A stretch of DNA of 64,000 bases, from assembly GCF_013170705.1 (NCBI RefSeq), contig NZ_CP033334.1, positions 4,131,501 to 4,195,500 of the forward strand, given 5' to 3'. The notes beneath the pieces are model-generated. The model made no database searches. It was given only the letters and a program-made list of their open reading frames with translations, and was not told the DNA's origin. Source of the stretch: Mesorhizobium loti (lineage in GTDB: Bacteria; Pseudomonadota; Alphaproteobacteria; Rhizobiales; Rhizobiaceae). Both the position numbers and the translations under genes were made by a program. Of this stretch, positions 22,581 to 34,593 are shown one piece after another (the first letter of the stretch is position 1; every line of letters starts with the position of its first letter).

Positions 22581-25364
22581 ATGCTTGAAAAGACCTACGA
22601 CGCAAAGACCGTCGAGCCGAAGATCGCCAAAGTGTGGGAAGAGGCCGACGCGTTTCGCGCCGGCGCCGGCGCCGAGGAGGGGGCCGAGGCCTTCACCATC
22701 GTCATCCCGCCGCCCAATGTCACCGGCTCGCTGCATATGGGCCATGCGCTGAACAACACGCTGCAGGACATATTGATCCGCTTCGAGCGCATGCGCGGCA
22801 AGAACGTGCTGTGGCAGCCGGGCATGGACCATGCCGGTATCGCCACGCAGATGGTGGTCGAGCGCCAGCTGATGGAAAGGCAGATCCATCGCCGCGACCT
22901 GACGCGTGAGGAATTCATCGAGAAGGTTTGGGAGTGGAAGGCCGAATCCGGCGGCGCCATCTTCAATCAGCTGAAGCGGCTCGGCGCCTCGGCCGACTGG
23001 TCCCGCGAACGCTTTACCATGGATGAAGGCTTGTCCAAGGCCGTGCTTGAAGTCTTCGTCACCCTCTACAAGGAAGGCCTGATATACAAGGACAAGCGCC
23101 TTGTGAACTGGGACCCGAAACTCTTGACCGCGATCTCCGACCTCGAGGTCGAGCAGCAGGAGGTCAACGGCAACCTCTGGCATTTCCGCTACCCGATCGA
23201 GGGCGAGACCTTCGACCCGGAAAATCCGAAGACCTTCATCACCGTGGCGACGACACGGCCCGAAACGATGCTGGGCGACACGGCCGTCGCGGTGCACCCG
23301 GACGACGAGCGGTACCGGCATCTGGTCGGCAGAAACGTTGTGCTGCCGATCGTCGGCAGAAAAATCCCCGTCGTGGCGGACGAATATTCCGATCCGGAAA
23401 AGGGTTCGGGCGCGGTCAAGATCACGCCAGCGCATGATTTCAACGACTTCGAGGTCGGCAAGCGTCACAAATTGCCGGCGATAAACATCCTGACCGTCGA
23501 AGCCGCCATCAAATTGAAGGACAATGAGGACTTCCTCGCCGGCCTCCAGGTCACGCCGGAACGCCAGGCTGTCTGGGCCGAGCTTGAAGGGCTCGACCGT
23601 TTCGTCGCGCGCAAGAAGATCGTCGAGCTGATGGAAGCCGGCGGCTTCCTCGACAAGGTCGAGCCGCATCGCCATGCCGTGCCGCATGGCGACCGCGGTG
23701 GTGTGCCGATCGAACCGTTCCTGACCGAGCAGTGGTATGCCAATGCCGCCGAACTCGCGAAGCCGGCCATTGCCTCTGTGCGCGAGGGCCGCACCAACTT
23801 CGTGCCGAAAAACTGGGAAAAAACCTATTTCGACTGGATGGAGAACATTCAGCCCTGGTGCATTTCGCGTCAGCTGTGGTGGGGTCACCAGATACCGGCG
23901 TGGTACGGGCCGGACGGACGCGTCTTCGTCGAGAAGTCGGAGGAAGAGGCGCTGAGTGCGGCTATCGAATACTATCTGGCGCTTGAAGGCCCGTGGAAGG
24001 CCTGGGTCGAGGACAAGTTGGAGAACTTCAAGCCCGGCGAGATCCTAACCCGCGACGAGGACGTGCTCGATACCTGGTTCTCCTCGGCACTTTGGCCGTT
24101 CTCAACTTTGGGCTGGCCGGACCAGACGCCTGAACTGAAGACGTATTACCAGACCGACGTGCTGGTGACCGGCTTCGACATCATCTTCTTCTGGGTTGCC
24201 CGCATGATGATGATGGGCCTGCACTTCATGGACGAGGAGCCGTTCCATACCGTCTATGTGCACGCGCTGGTTCGCGACAAGAACGGCGCCAAGATGTCGA
24301 AGTCGAAAGGTAACGTCATCGACCCGCTCGACCTCATCGACGAGTACGGCGCCGACGCGCTGCGTTTCACGCTGGCGGTGATGGCGGCACAGGGGCGCGA
24401 CGTGAAGCTCGATCCGGCACGCATCGCCGGCTATCGCAATTTCGGCACCAAGCTGTGGAACGCAACGCGCTTCGCCGAGATGAACGAAGTCGCCCGCAAT
24501 GACGATTTCTGGCTGAACGATGCCAAGCTGGCGGTGAACCGCTGGATCCTGACCGAACTGACACGCGCTGCGCGCGAGGTCACGGACGGCATCACCTCAT
24601 ACCGCTTCAACGAAGCGGCCGGGGCGGCCTACCGCTTCGTCTGGAACCTGTTTTGCGACTGGTATCTCGAGCTGCTGAAACCGGTGTTCATGGGCACGGA
24701 CGAGGCGGCCAAGGCCGAAAGCCGCGCCTGCGTAGCCTTCGTGCTCGACGAGATCTACAAGCTTCTGCATCCGATGATGCCGTTCATGACGGAAGAGCTG
24801 TGGGCGCAGACGGCGGGCGAGGGCAAGGAGCGCGAGTCGCTGCTTTGCCACGCCGCCTGGCCGGCGCCGGATTTCGAGGACGCGGATGCCGCCGCCGACA
24901 TCAACTGGCTGGTCGACCTCGTCTCTGGCATCCGCTCGGTGCGCTCGGAGATGAATGTGCCGCCGGCGGCCATCGCGCCGCTGGTCGTGGTCGGCGCCAA
25001 CGATCTCACGCGTGAGCGGCTGGTTCGCGAGGACTCGGCGATCAAGCGGCTGGCGCGTGTCGGTGACATCTCGCTCGCCGATGCGGCGCCCAAGGGCGCG
25101 GCGCAGATCGTGCTCAACGAGGCGACGATCTGCCTGCCGCTTGGCAGCTTGATCGATCTCGCCGCCGAGGCCACGCGGCTGCAGAAGGAACTGGCCAAGG
25201 TCACAGAGGAAATCGCGCGCTTGCACAAGAAGCTGTCCAACGAACGGTTCGTTGCCAGCGCGCCGGCCGAGATTGTCGAGGCCGAGCGCGAAAAGCTCGC
25301 CGAATACCGCGATGCGCAGGACAAGCTTTCGGTGGCTTTGACCAGAGTTCGCGACGCCGGTTGA
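22581..25364 (+). CDS. valS: Valyl-tRNA synthetase
   Basis: 927 residues, normal length for ValS. The class I signatures are PPNVTGSLHMGHALNN (HIGH) and KMSKSKGNVIDPLDL (KMSKS). The CP1 editing domain lies between them, with TTRPETMLGDTAVAVHP and GSGAVKITPAHDFNDF. The C-terminal coiled-coil arm (AAEATRLQKELAKVTEEIAR) is the ValS-specific tRNA-binding arm. The start is the ATG at 22581, where homology begins (MLEKTYDAKTVEPKIA); the open frame runs further upstream. Confidence 0.95.
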   Translation: MLEKTYDAKTVEPKIAKVWEEADAFRAGAGAEEGAEAFTIVIPPPNVTGSLHMGHALNNTLQDILIRFERMRGKNVLWQPGMDHAGIATQMVVERQLMERQIHRRDLTREEFIEKVWEWKAESGGAIFNQLKRLGASADWSRERFTMDEGLSKAVLEVFVTLYKEGLIYKDKRLVNWDPKLLTAISDLEVEQQEVNGNLWHFRYPIEGETFDPENPKTFITVATTRPETMLGDTAVAVHPDDERYRHLVGRNVVLPIVGRKIPVVADEYSDPEKGSGAVKITPAHDFNDFEVGKRHKLPAINILTVEAAIKLKDNEDFLAGLQVTPERQAVWAELEGLDRFVARKKIVELMEAGGFLDKVEPHRHAVPHGDRGGVPIEPFLTEQWYANAAELAKPAIASVREGRTNFVPKNWEKTYFDWMENIQPWCISRQLWWGHQIPAWYGPDGRVFVEKSEEEALSAAIEYYLALEGPWKAWVEDKLENFKPGEILTRDEDVLDTWFSSALWPFSTLGWPDQTPELKTYYQTDVLVTGFDIIFFWVARMMMMGLHFMDEEPFHTVYVHALVRDKNGAKMSKSKGNVIDPLDLIDEYGADALRFTLAVMAAQGRDVKLDPARIAGYRNFGTKLWNATRFAEMNEVARNDDFWLNDAKLAVNRWILTELTRAAREVTDGITSYRFNEAAGAAYRFVWNLFCDWYLELLKPVFMGTDEAAKAESRACVAFVLDEIYKLLHPMMPFMTEELWAQTAGEGKERESLLCHAAWPAPDFEDADAAADINWLVDLVSGIRSVRSEMNVPPAAIAPLVVVGANDLTRERLVREDSAIKRLARVGDISLADAAPKGAAQIVLNEATICLPLGSLIDLAAEATRLQKELAKVTEEIARLHKKLSNERFVASAPAEIVEAEREKLAEYRDAQDKLSVALTRVRDAG

Positions 25365-31839: not shown

Positions 31840-32460
31840 TCAGAACCTGAGGATTGGCTGTATCAACTGGCCCAAAAAGCTTTGAAGCCTGATGCTTCCT
31901 TGAAGCGCGACTATGCAGACGCAGGGCACGTCACTGCAAATGCGTGGCTTGTGGTCGACGGTTTCGTCCGCCTCGTCGAAGTCGCCAGGACCGTAACGGC
32001 CGAATTGGTGTTCAAAAGCGCCCTCCAGAACACACGTCCATTCGTCACCGGTATGCTTGTGGTGCGGAAGCGTGATTCCGGGTGCCGCCTTCAGCATGAA
32101 GACCTTGATATCGGAATCGCCGGCGACGGAGACGGCGCGTTGCTGCAGACCGGGCCACACCCGGCGCCATGGACCGAGCTTATGACGGTCGAGCAGCTGC
32201 TCGGATGCGATCTCCGCGCCCTGGGCGCTCGTACCGATCGATCCCAGCGCCGCCTGGAGCGCGCCGGGCCTCATCGACACTGGCAATGCCTGCTCAAGGA
32301 GCGCTCCACCGATCGCTTCATATTGATCGACCGCGTGGCCACAGGCGGCGCACAAGGATCGATGGATCGAGACGACCAGGCTACGCGCTTCATCAAGCGT
32401 GCCGGAGGCGAAGGCGGCCAGAGTCTCGTCGCTCGGATGGTGGGTAATGTCGTTCGTCAT
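31840..32460 (-). CDS. chrR: ChrR-family anti-sigma factor (zinc cupin)
   Basis: 206 residues. The N-terminal anti-sigma domain (about 1-85) has HHPSDETLAAFASGTLDEA and the zinc ligands in HRSLCAACG (H-x3-C-x2-C). The C-terminal cupin domain (about 95-200) has the metal motif GITLPHHKHTGDEWTCVLEG. In Rhodobacter, ChrR binds the sigma factor RpoE and releases it in the presence of singlet oxygen or organic peroxide, the cupin domain being needed for peroxide signalling. The ATG overlaps the sigma gene stop by four bases, so the pair is stoichiometrically coupled. Confidence 0.88.
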   Translation of the reverse strand: MTNDITHHPSDETLAAFASGTLDEARSLVVSIHRSLCAACGHAVDQYEAIGGALLEQALPVSMRPGALQAALGSIGTSAQGAEIASEQLLDRHKLGPWRRVWPGLQQRAVSVAGDSDIKVFMLKAAPGITLPHHKHTGDEWTCVLEGAFEHQFGRYGPGDFDEADETVDHKPRICSDVPCVCIVALQGSIRLQSFLGQLIQPILRF

Positions 32461-33008
32461 CTCAGCTCACCAAGCTTCCCTCTCAATCGATGCAGAGCCA
32501 GCCTCATCCGCGACTTTACGGTGCCGAGCGGTATCCCAAGCAGTTTGGCGATCTCGGCATGCGCCAGGCCGTCGAAAAACGACAATCGGACAACGCGCAA
32601 TTGGTCGCTGGGCAGCGTTGCGATCGAGGTCCTGACCAGGTCTTCGCGCTCGGCCGCGAGAAGCTGCCCTTCTGGCTCGTCTGGATCTGCCTCTTCCTGA
32701 ACGGCTTCGTCTTCCAACCATTTGGCGGCTCGAAGGTCACGACGGCCGAGATCGATGCCTACATTGCGCGCGATGGCATAGACCCAGCTCGATGCCGTAG
32801 CGCGTCCGGGGTCGAACTGGCTGGCATTTCGCCAGAGCCTGAGCAGGGTTTCCTGCGCGAGGTCTTCCGCACGGTCGGGGCTTGCGCCGCGTCGGATCAT
32901 CATGGATTTCACGCGTGGCGCGTAGTGCTCGAATAGGCTCACGAAAGCATCCCGATCCTGGGTTGCCGCAACGCGAGTGATTAACCAGGCTGGATCGAAT
33001 TCAACCAT
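32457..33008 (-). CDS. rpoE: ECF sigma factor, RpoE/ECF11-like
   Basis: 183 residues from the ATG at 33008, with AAGGCG just upstream. Sigma region 2 includes AFVSLFEHYAPRVKSMMIRRG and SPDRAEDLAQETLLRLWRN, followed by ASSWVYAIARNVGIDLGRRD. Region 4 includes LPSDQLRVVRLSFFDGLAHA and KLLGIPLGTVKSRMRLALHR. The adjacent overlapping chrR gene identifies the RpoE-ChrR type, which governs the singlet-oxygen response. A TGATCC-N16-CGTAA promoter 64 bases upstream suggests autoregulation. It is divergent from an operon containing a second ECF sigma factor. Confidence 0.88.
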   Translation of the reverse strand: MVEFDPAWLITRVAATQDRDAFVSLFEHYAPRVKSMMIRRGASPDRAEDLAQETLLRLWRNASQFDPGRATASSWVYAIARNVGIDLGRRDLRAAKWLEDEAVQEEADPDEPEGQLLAAEREDLVRTSIATLPSDQLRVVRLSFFDGLAHAEIAKLLGIPLGTVKSRMRLALHRLRGKLGELR

Positions 33009-33071
33009 CGCCTTGCAGTATACGCTCAAACTTGCTCCGGCTGACCAGGCAGCTCTTTGGGTCGTTGGTCT

Positions 33072-33100
33072 TTTTACGAACTGCGCGCGGGTTCGGATCA
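33072..33100 (-). promoter_or_regulatory. ECF-type promoter of rpoE-chrR
   Basis: On the minus strand, TGATCC (33095-33100) is followed after 18 bases by TAAAA (33072-33076), with CG just before it. TGATCC is the -35 known for RpoE-ChrR-type sigma factors. The start codon is 64 bases downstream, a normal leader. Confidence 0.65.
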
Positions 33101-33140
33101 CATTCCCAGGCAAAATGATTTTTGTTCGTTTGATCGGCAG

Positions 33141-33169
33141 TGATCCAATTCGGGTCTTGAGCCGTAACC
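33141..33169 (+). promoter_or_regulatory. Divergent ECF-type promoter of the unknown protein-sigma operon
   Basis: TGATCC (33141-33146), then 18 bases ending CCG, then TAACC (33165-33169). Spacing and the CGTAA -10 core match the promoter on the opposite strand exactly. The first gene starts 52 bases downstream. Confidence 0.6.
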
Positions 33170-33220
33170 AGAACAAACCAATCGCTTCGCAAGCGACCAG
33201 CAGTCAGGAGCCCGCGTGAG

Positions 33221-34054
33221 ATGCCTAAGATCTCGCTGATAATCGGCAGCGCGCCCGACGCGGTCAGGGCCAGGGACTGGGATCGCTCGGCATTCACCGA
33301 CATCGTCGCCATAAACAACGCCTGGGCCGTGCGGCCCGATTGGGACTATCTGATCCACCCAGACGATTTTCCCGAGGGACGGTTGCCGGATAGCCCGAGC
33401 CCGCGGTTTGCATCGATCATAACATCCGCCGAGTTCGTGCCCGCGCAGAACCTGTTCGGTGGATTCGTCTACGCCGGCGGGACAATGGCATTTACCGCGG
33501 GCTACTGGGCGCTGAAGGCGCTGAAGCCCGACATCATAGCCTTTTTAGGCTGCGATATGGTGTATCCCGCGAACGCGCCTACGCACTTCTACGGGGTTGG
33601 CACGGCAGATCCGCTGAGGAACGACGTAACTCTGAGGGATCTGAAGGCGAAGTCGGCAAGGCTGTTCGCCCAAGCCCTGCGTCACGGAACGCTGTGCCTC
33701 AACCTGTCTGAGCTTCCCGTAACGCGTCTTGCCCTACCGCGCGTGACGCTGCCTTTAATCGAGCGGCTTACCTCCGCCCGCATCAAAGCCATCAGGGCGA
33801 AGTTCAGATCGGCGATCGACGATACGTCGATGGAGAACGCCATCAGGCTCGAAAGTGAGCTTGGCTATTTTGTCCAAAATGGGCGGTATTGGGAAAGTAT
33901 CTCGGACTTCGATGGAGTCTCTCTCTCTAAAATCGACGGTCACTGGAGATCTTCTGTAAGGAACATTCCCAACTCGGCATTTCCAAGCGATTTTTGCGGC
34001 GCGCGCGGATCCAAGGTTGTTTCACCTCCGGTCGAGATCGAGCGATTCCCGTGA
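33221..34054 (+). CDS. Unknown protein, possibly glycosyltransferase-like
   Basis: 277 residues, no firm family. The start KISLIIGSAPDAV looks like a nucleotide-binding strand-loop. It is followed by DIVAINNAW, WDYLIHPDDFP, YAGGTMAFTAGYWALKALKP, DIIAFLGCDMVY and THFYG. This layout recalls MAF/DUF115-like or sialyltransferase-like proteins that bind a sugar nucleotide, but no catalytic residue can be assigned. No signal peptide or membrane helix. Its stop overlaps the ATG of the ECF sigma gene (TGATG), so the two are co-translated. A TGATCC-type ECF promoter lies upstream. Confidence 0.6.
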   Translation: MPKISLIIGSAPDAVRARDWDRSAFTDIVAINNAWAVRPDWDYLIHPDDFPEGRLPDSPSPRFASIITSAEFVPAQNLFGGFVYAGGTMAFTAGYWALKALKPDIIAFLGCDMVYPANAPTHFYGVGTADPLRNDVTLRDLKAKSARLFAQALRHGTLCLNLSELPVTRLALPRVTLPLIERLTSARIKAIRAKFRSAIDDTSMENAIRLESELGYFVQNGRYWESISDFDGVSLSKIDGHWRSSVRNIPNSAFPSDFCGARGSKVVSPPVEIERFP

Positions 34055-34593
34055 TGAATCGTGATGACATATCAAGGCTGATCCTGCGGACAAGCATGCA
34101 AGACCGGGCCGCGTTCGATCTTCTCTATCGGCATACGAGCGGGAAGCTATTCGGAATTTGCTTGGGCATACTTGGTCATCGGTGCGAAGCGGAGGAGGCG
34201 CTGCAGGAGGTTTACGTCAAGATCTGGTCCAAAGCAGACCGCTTCGTGATTTCGGAACTCAGTCCCATTTCATGGCTTGCGGCAATCGCTCGCAACCATG
34301 CGATAGATCGGGTCCGGTCGCGCCGGCCAGCTACCGCCGACCTCGCTGCCGCGGACGATGTCGCCGATCCGACCCCTTTGGCCGAAGCTTTGCTAATCGC
34401 AGCCGACGATACGAAGCGCGTGCATCGATGCATCGATGCACTGGGAAGGGAAAAGGCGGAAGCCGTGCGAGGCGCTTACATCGAGGGCCTCTCTTACGCG
34501 CAATTGGCCGAGCGTCATGACGTGCCGATAAACACGATGCGGACTTGGCTTCGTCGCGGGCTGATAAATATCAGAGCCAATTTTGGCAAATAA
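34054..34593 (+). CDS. ECF sigma factor, second in the region
   Basis: 179 residues from the ATG at 34054. Region 2 has FDLLYRHTSGKLFGICLGIL and EAEEALQEVYVKIWSKADRF, then WLAAIARNHAIDRVRSRR. Region 4 has CIDALGREKAEAVRGAYIEG, LSYAQLAERHDVPINTMRTW and LRRGLINIRANF. It resembles SigK/RpoE-type ECF factors, which usually have an anti-sigma gene next door; none is present here. Translation is coupled to the upstream unknown gene. The divergent promoter pair suggests it is transcribed by the neighbouring RpoE, making a two-step cascade. Confidence 0.85.
   Translation: MNRDDISRLILRTSMQDRAAFDLLYRHTSGKLFGICLGILGHRCEAEEALQEVYVKIWSKADRFVISELSPISWLAAIARNHAIDRVRSRRPATADLAAADDVADPTPLAEALLIAADDTKRVHRCIDALGREKAEAVRGAYIEGLSYAQLAERHDVPINTMRTWLRRGLINIRANFGK

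What the first reader, a model, noticed from the sequence alone, without database searches (positions are those of the whole stretch)
32457..34593. Apparent two-step sigma cascade: RpoE-ChrR divergent from an operon carrying a second ECF sigma factor, with matching promoters
Seen: on both strands between 33008 and 33221 there is a TGATCC-N16-CGTAA element (33072-33100 minus, 33141-33169 plus), identical in spacing and core. The minus one serves rpoE-chrR; the plus one serves a gene of unknown function whose stop overlaps the start of another ECF sigma factor. Known: RpoE-ChrR (ECF11) sigma factors use a TGATCC -35 and respond to singlet oxygen. Inferred: the first sigma factor transcribes the second, and a soluble unknown protein is made with it in fixed ratio. 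The second sigma factor has no recognisable anti-sigma neighbour, so the unknown protein might control it.
Basis: partly seen in the sequence, partly recalled or inferred. Interest (0 to 1): 0.7.

Follow-up and report, generated by a model that had tools for sequence, protein, structure and literature searches.

The report
Oxygen-stress sensor relayed through second sigma
In some Mesorhizobium bacteria a sensor-controlled transcription factor for singlet-oxygen damage appears to switch on a second, related transcription factor in place of the membrane-lipid genes it faces in relatives, and the second factor probably passes the signal on to a separate set of such lipid genes.

Summary
TGATCC-N16-CGTAA occurs twice in the 6.87 Mb genome, as a divergent pair at 33100-33074(-) and 33141-33167(+). 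The core is invariant in 20 of 20 promoters of 10 related rpoE-chrR loci, so RpoE control of the rightward operon is very likely. Other inferences need changing. The unknown protein has a predicted Maf/GT42/MptE-like enzyme fold, is absent from one genome that keeps rpoE-chrR and sig2, and in 38 of 46 genomes occurs without sig2: probably not an anti-sigma. The stop/start overlap is in 2 of 9 loci. The second sigma is a 67% duplicate of a near-universal RskA-linked sigma (137 of 146 genomes). In 18 of 18 other-type ECF11 loci examined, the divergent promoter faces a ufaD-like gene (furan fatty acids). All 7 chrR genomes lacking that gene carry sig2 and an unlinked ufaD-ufaO-ufaM-like operon, whose promoter (TGAAACTC-N14-CGTA, 15 of 15) resembles that of the fasciclin gene beside the sig2 paralogue. 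I propose RpoE -> Sig2 -> lipid operon: a relay replaces direct control. The first step is strongly supported; the second is inferred, and the association is not significant once relatedness is controlled.

The parts
31840..32460 (-). chrR: zinc anti-sigma/cupin factor, ECF11 partner
   Evidence: TIGR02451 158.7 bits (cut-off 124.5; NF051881 197.2, under its cut-off 300) and Pfam ChrR cupin; PDB 2z2s ChrR E 3.3e-29; the 8 zinc-ligand positions named in PMC6852236 are present by my reading of the alignment
32457..33008 (-). rpoE: ECF11 sigma factor
   Evidence: sigma regions 2 and 4; best PDB match R. sphaeroides RpoE 2q1z E 1.8e-32
33074..33100 (-). RpoE-type promoter of rpoE-chrR: TGATCC (33100-33095) N16 CGTAA (33078-33074)
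   Evidence: GTGATCC-N16-CGTA invariant in 10 of 10 close-type loci
33141..33167 (+). RpoE-type promoter of the orfX-sig2 operon: TGATCC (33141-33146) N16 CGTAA (33163-33167)
   Evidence: GTGATCC-N16-CGTA invariant in 10 of 10 close-type loci
33221..34054 (+). orfX: predicted enzyme of the MptE/DUF115, Maf and GT42 sialyltransferase-like fold, substrate unknown
34054..34593 (+). sig2: second ECF sigma factor, SigK-like, no recognisable adjacent anti-sigma
   Evidence: sigma regions 2 and 4; NF009167 252.4 bits, just under cut-off 265; best PDB match SigK 4nqw; 67% identical to the RskA-linked paralogue
34052..34056 (+). TGATG overlap of orfX stop and sig2 start
   Evidence: sequence; overlap seen in 2 of 9 loci

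Best explanation
RpoE, held by ChrR until singlet oxygen or organic peroxide inactivates ChrR, transcribes its own operon leftward and orfX-sig2 rightward from two copies of the same promoter. Sig2, made without a recognisable linked anti-sigma, then reads TGAAACTC-N14-CGTA-type promoters, the type found at the locus of its RskA-linked paralogue, and so turns on an unlinked ufaD-ufaO-ufaM-like furan-fatty-acid operon and a fasciclin/MsrB locus. In relatives RpoE drives a ufaD-like gene directly from this same divergent promoter; here a duplicated sigma factor occupies that slot and relays the signal. OrfX is a co-induced enzyme, perhaps of surface glycan chemistry, not a regulator. Shown by sequence and comparison: the genes, the promoter pair and its conservation, the different content of the divergent slot, the motif before the unlinked operon. 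Inferred: that RpoE reads the pair, that Sig2 reads TGAAACTC promoters, the inducing signal, and OrfX's chemistry.
For: Exact pair unique in the genome; GTGATCC-N16-CGTA in 20 of 20 promoters of 10 loci while spacers average 42% identity overall and 55-58% within each direction. Close ChrR type and sig2: 8 genomes have both, 1 only the first, 1 only the second, 136 neither. In 18 of 18 other-type ECF11 loci examined (19 were found) and in close-type G092 the divergent slot holds the ufaD-like amine oxidase behind a TGATC-type promoter. Of 27 genomes with a strong ChrR match, 20 have this ufaD type with a TGATC-type promoter; the other 7 all have sig2 and the unlinked operon. That operon has GAAACT-N15-CGTA within 200 bases upstream in 15 of 15 genomes and TGATC[CT]-N16-CGTA in 0 of 15; the fasciclin gene beside the paralogue has the same motif in 29 of 30 loci. 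In this genome GAAAC-N16-CGTATC has 5 sites, 0 in the control: these two and 3 inside ORFs. Sig2 and paralogue consensus sequences agree at 24 of 27 region 4.2 and 15 of 18 region 2.4 positions.
Against: No expression data. The sig2/unlinked-operon association (8 of 9 sig2 genomes versus 7 of 137 others, Fisher p 1.3e-8) is not significant by independent pairs on a tree of 50 genomes: taking sig2 as the splitting trait, 2-3 of 5 pairs agree and 0 oppose, median p 0.25; taking the operon, 2-3 agree, at most 1 opposes, median p 0.5. 7 genomes have the operon and its motif without sig2, so the paralogue alone can plausibly serve it. G020 has sig2 but no unlinked operon and no adjacent rpoE-chrR. 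The looser motif GAAACT-N15/16-CGTA is no commoner than its reversed control (9 versus 15). Among 29 ufaD homologues of other genera in the order, 2 have a GAAAC-type and 6 a TGATC-type site within 300 bases. In B. japonicum no common motif was found before EcfQ-dependent genes (PMC3420878), if EcfQ is a fair comparison.
Confidence: 0.62

Rival explanations
1. One-step version: RpoE transcribes orfX-sig2, but Sig2 reads a different, unidentified promoter set; the TGAAACTC promoters belong only to the RskA-linked paralogue or to another sigma.
For: 7 genomes have the TGAAACTC-type operon without sig2; the tree-controlled association is not significant; Sig2 and paralogue share only 11 of 29 linker positions.
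Against: Near-identical promoter-contact regions (24 of 27 and 15 of 18); all 7 chrR genomes without the TGATC-type ufaD have both sig2 and the unlinked operon.
Confidence: 0.25
2. Sig2 acts mainly by competition: it titrates the RskA anti-sigma of its paralogue, so RpoE activation frees the paralogue to drive the shared regulon.
For: 67% identity to the paralogue; RskA linked to the paralogue in 30 of 30 loci examined; no anti-sigma recognised beside sig2.
Against: Sig2 keeps complete regions 2 and 4 with conserved DNA-contact positions, which pure titration would not need. Binding was not tested.
Confidence: 0.08
3. One reading: the unknown protein binds and controls Sig2.
For: Same operon; overlapping stop and start in the window and in M. 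erdmanii.
Against: Predicted MptE/Maf/GT42-like enzyme fold; 38 of 46 orfX genomes in the genus lack sig2; none of 31 loci from other genera has sig2 in the flanks held; G138 has sig2 and no orfX match; overlap absent in 7 of 9 loci.
Confidence: 0.04

Closest known systems
Rhodobacter sphaeroides RpoE-ChrR (ECF11) -> RpoHII cascade (PMC6852236; passages read)
   Same: ChrR-held ECF11 sigma transcribes a second sigma factor; rpoE-chrR and furan-fatty-acid genes are in its core regulon.
   Different: There the second sigma is of the heat-shock family and the furan-fatty-acid genes are direct targets; here it is a SigK-like ECF sigma sitting in the slot that holds a ufaD-like gene in relatives.
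Bradyrhizobium japonicum EcfQ / Blr3042, ECF class 33 (PMC3420878; abstract, passages and section 9 read)
   Same: Two related ECF sigmas; in most species of the class one has a linked anti-sigma and one has none; the orphan EcfQ is controlled by transcription and induced by H2O2 and singlet oxygen.
   Different: The regulator of ecfQ is unknown and the promoter boxes given (GCAGAC, TAACAAT) are not RpoE-type; here the orphan is behind an RpoE-type promoter. Sequence membership in class 33 was not tested.
Mycobacterium tuberculosis SigK-RskA (PDB 4nqw; its fasciclin-type target genes are recalled)
   Same: Sig2 is closest to SigK among solved sigmas; its paralogue is followed by an RskA_C protein and a fasciclin gene.
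   Different: Sig2 itself has no RskA beside it and sits behind another ECF sigma's promoter.
Azospirillum brasilense RpoE1/RpoE2 -> RpoH cascades and RpoE6 -> RpoE8 (PMC8226930, PMC12826043; passages read)
   Same: ECF sigmas acting through further sigmas in an alphaproteobacterium.
   Different: No ECF11 to SigK-like step and no replacement of a furan-fatty-acid gene is described in the passages read.

Membership tests
ECF11 RpoE-ChrR | Sigma with regions 2 and 4, closest to R. sphaeroides RpoE | tested here: met
   (2q1z best, E 1.8e-32)
ECF11 RpoE-ChrR | Linked zinc anti-sigma with cupin domain and conserved zinc ligands | tested here: met
   TIGR02451 above cut-off; 2z2s match; H8, H33, C37, C40 and H134, H136, E140, H170 align, by my reading, with the ligands named in PMC6852236
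ECF11 RpoE-ChrR | TGATC-type promoter in front of its own operon | tested here: met
   28 of 28 genus loci examined; that TGATCC is the ECF11 -35 is recalled, not read
ECF11 RpoE-ChrR | Response to singlet oxygen or organic peroxide | not testable with these tools
   needs expression data
SigK-type sigma with RskA anti-sigma | Sequence closest to SigK | tested here: met
   4nqw best solved match, E 5.2e-23
SigK-type sigma with RskA anti-sigma | Adjacent RskA anti-sigma | tested here: not met
   no Pfam match in the 3 ORFs tested downstream of sig2; met for the paralogue in 30 of 30 loci
ECF class 33 (EcfQ type) | Sequence membership in the class | not tested
DUF115/MptE-like enzymes (orfX) | Match to a DUF115/MptE profile in Pfam | tested here: not met
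   0 families for orfX at E 0.1; among 72 members only 5 unrelated families, each in 1-3 members, best E 0.012
DUF115/MptE-like enzymes (orfX) | Shared fold | tested here: inconclusive

The most novel reading that the evidence does not exclude
A regulatory rewiring by sigma insertion: a duplicated SigK-like ECF sigma has taken over the divergent RpoE promoter slot of the furan-fatty-acid genes, and a second, unlinked furan-fatty-acid operon is now reached through that sigma. Because furan fatty acids are needed for ChrR turnover under singlet oxygen in R. sphaeroides (PMC6852236), the relay would also sit inside the feedback loop that switches RpoE on, and the shared promoter would let a second, RskA-sensed signal feed the same lipid output.
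Probability: 0.45. Interest if true: 0.72.

Novelty: new variant of a known kind. Interest (0 to 1): 0.57.

Why it matters
It offers a natural series within one genus (direct control, both, relay, relay without orfX, orfX-sig2 without a local sensor) for asking how a stress sensor's core regulon is rewired through an extra sigma factor, and why orphan ECF sigmas without anti-sigmas exist. It also gives a concrete predicted controller, RpoE-ChrR, for one such orphan; for B. japonicum EcfQ, a comparable orphan, the regulator was left unknown (PMC3420878).

Tried and rejected
Anti-sigma role for orfX: rejected as unlikely (fold, distribution, absence from G138). Fixed-ratio coupling: rejected as a general feature, 2 of 9 loci.

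Autoregulation of sig2 by its own predicted promoter: no GAAAC-N15/17-CGTA site lies near the operon; the only one in the window is at 24368 on the minus strand.

Other direct RpoE targets in this genome: GTGATCY-N16-CGTA has 4 sites, the pair plus 609617 and 4979189, both inside ORFs (153 and 116 codons) whose coding status is unsure. The third site of the near relative G013 has a different sequence and was not placed on a gene. In the ten genomes the reversed control gave 0 to 2 hits a genome. Degenerate RpoE sites could be missed, so 'few direct targets' is only a suggestion.

TGAAACTC control of ufaD beyond the genus: of 231 of 397 order genomes with a match I examined 29 loci: 2 with GAAAC-N15/17-CGTA, 6 with TGATC[CT]-N15/17-CGTA within 300 bases, 0.06 and 0.04 expected from shuffles. 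Not a general rule.

Rows dropped: 33 of 146 genomes had a ChrR match; 6 weak ones (E 1e-5 to 1e-3) were dropped, leaving 27 (28 strong-match loci fetched or examined of 29 found; one of two loci of G141 was left out of the promoter count). 35 of 146 had a ufaD match; G134, in three fragments, was dropped from the counts. The tree holds 50 genomes: the 30 whose paralogue loci one search returned and 20 that I chose for their sig2, ufaD or chrR content.

Sequence look-up of orfX itself gave nothing with E under 0.1 in Pfam, NCBIfam or the PDB; plain Foldseek against the PDB gave no match under E 0.068.

Literature: searches of the held PMC library (20 of 24 listed; 15 of 62 listed). None of the titles and abstract beginnings shown describes RpoE-ChrR control of a second ECF sigma in Mesorhizobium. 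I did not look for the Caulobacter SigE-ChrR regulon paper or Dufour 2008 by id; both are known to me only as references.
Full report
What is in the window. The four genes are chrR (31840-32460, minus), rpoE (32457-33008, minus), an unknown gene here called orfX (33221-34054, plus) and a second ECF sigma, here called sig2 (34054-34593, plus). RpoE and ChrR are closest to the R. sphaeroides ECF11 pair among solved structures (2q1z and 2z2s). The window lies in a one-contig 6,870,350-base genome; the nearest named relative found is Mesorhizobium erdmanii (97% orfX identity).

The promoter pair. TGATCC-N16-CGTAA occurs twice in the window, never in 100 shuffles, and twice in the whole genome, with none for the reversed pattern. 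Both copies lie between rpoE and orfX. Looser forms are commoner: TGATCY-N16-CGTA 11 and GTGATCY-N16-CGTA 4 in the genome. I collected rpoE-chrR loci from 146 genus genomes. Ten loci in nine genomes carry the close ChrR type (63% identity or more). All ten have one GTGATCC-N16-CGTA in each direction: 20 of 20 promoters. Core positions are identical throughout, while spacers average 42% identity over all and 55-58% within each direction; this is the mark of conserved promoter elements. Of 19 loci of the other ChrR type I examined 18, and they too have the pair: 36 of 36 promoters with TGATC[CT]-N16-CGTA.

What sits on the right-hand promoter. In 18 of 18 other-type loci examined it is a homologue of that amine oxidase. 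In G092 it is followed by a DUF1365-like reading frame (read by eye). I take the amine oxidase to be UfaD of furan-fatty-acid synthesis: PMC7380195 (passages read) gives DUF1365 as UfaO, a SAM methylase as UfaM and three consecutive R. palustris genes for UfaD, UfaO and UfaM; that UfaD is of this oxidase family is by gene order and recall. PMC6852236 (passages read) puts furan-fatty-acid genes in the core RpoE-ChrR regulon. So the divergent promoter slot is conserved and its content has changed.

What sig2 is. Its best solved match is SigK. The genome holds a 67% identical paralogue, followed by an RskA_C anti-sigma, a fasciclin gene and an MsrB-type gene with a Tat-like start. The paralogue is in 137 of 146 genus genomes at 84% identity or more; sig2 is in nine genomes, ten loci, at 65-69% (identities to the paralogue). 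Nine of the ten sit beside the close-type rpoE-chrR. RskA follows the paralogue in 30 of 30 loci examined; no anti-sigma is recognisable beside sig2. Consensus sequences of sig2 (10) and paralogue (30) agree at 24 of 27 positions of region 4.2, 15 of 18 of region 2.4 and 11 of 29 of the linker (region limits set by me).

Where the signal may go next. Before the fasciclin gene, TGAAACT-N15-CGTATCT (one extra base allowed) is present in 29 of 30 loci. GAAAC-N16-CGTATC occurs five times in this genome, 0 in the control: before the fasciclin gene, before an unlinked operon at 2145483, and three times inside reading frames. The unlinked operon encodes a flavin amine oxidase, a DUF1365 protein and a CMAS-type methylase, the ufaD-ufaO-ufaM order inferred for R. 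palustris. Its first gene is in 15 of 146 genomes at 76% identity or more; all 15 have GAAACT-N15-CGTA within 200 bases upstream and none has TGATC[CT]-N16-CGTA there. Among 27 genomes with a strong ChrR match, 20 have the other ufaD type behind a TGATC-type promoter. The remaining seven all have both sig2 and the unlinked operon (Fisher p 4e-5 for sig2 and 9e-6 for the operon, not corrected for relatedness).

Limits. A tree of 50 genomes (DNA of the paralogue and rskA; sample chosen partly by content) shows sig2 and the unlinked operon to be patchy (7 and 9 changes). Independent pairs agree in 2-3 of 5; none opposes with sig2 as the splitting trait (median p 0.25) and at most one with the operon as the splitting trait (median p 0.5): same direction, not significant. 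Seven genomes have the operon without sig2. A looser form of the motif is not enriched over its control. Beyond the genus the motif is rare before ufaD homologues (2 of 29 examined). No expression data were available, so the pairing of Sig2 with TGAAACTC promoters rests on adjacency to its paralogue, conservation and similar DNA-contact regions.

Verdict. The extra finding is that this cascade occupies the slot that holds a furan-fatty-acid gene in relatives and probably reaches a second such operon through sig2. Sigma cascades below RpoE-ChrR are known, so this is a new variant of a known kind.

Noticed in passing
L109 and L110 (G024:C1:6169500-6177000 and 2797000-2804500): One genome carries two complete copies of the chrR-rpoE/orfX-sig2 module plus an unlinked TGATC-type ufaD-like gene (promoter at 6255373), so it may have both direct and relayed control.
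   Followed up: partly
L116 / L006 (G020, M. jarvisii): orfX-sig2 with its TGATCC promoter is kept although no rpoE-chrR is adjacent; an other-type rpoE-chrR lies about 354 kb away on the same contig.
   Followed up: partly
L152:873 and equivalents in L148, L149, L150, L153, L154: A further GAAACTC-N15-CGTA site lies about 600 bases before the unlinked ufaD-like operon, just upstream of a short reading frame with a signal-peptide-like start (by eye); not seen in L151.
   Followed up: no
L016 and L018 (Roseicyclus): An orfX homologue lies about 2 kb from rpoE-chrR in a different family of bacteria, transcribed towards it; may be chance.
   Followed up: no
G134:C1:739910-741242: The unlinked ufaD-like gene is in three fragments in this genome.
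   Followed up: no
L108:3230-3316: Upstream of the RskA-linked paralogue a block around TTGCAAATAC...CCTAATTTG looks conserved in most of 30 loci (by eye) and resembles a housekeeping promoter more than an ECF one.
   Followed up: partly
PMC3420878, section 9: The B. japonicum ecfQ upstream region is described as having repeated GAAAC boxes; the same pentamer is the core of the motif found here before the fasciclin and unlinked ufaD-like genes. Whether this is more than chance was not tested.
   Followed up: no
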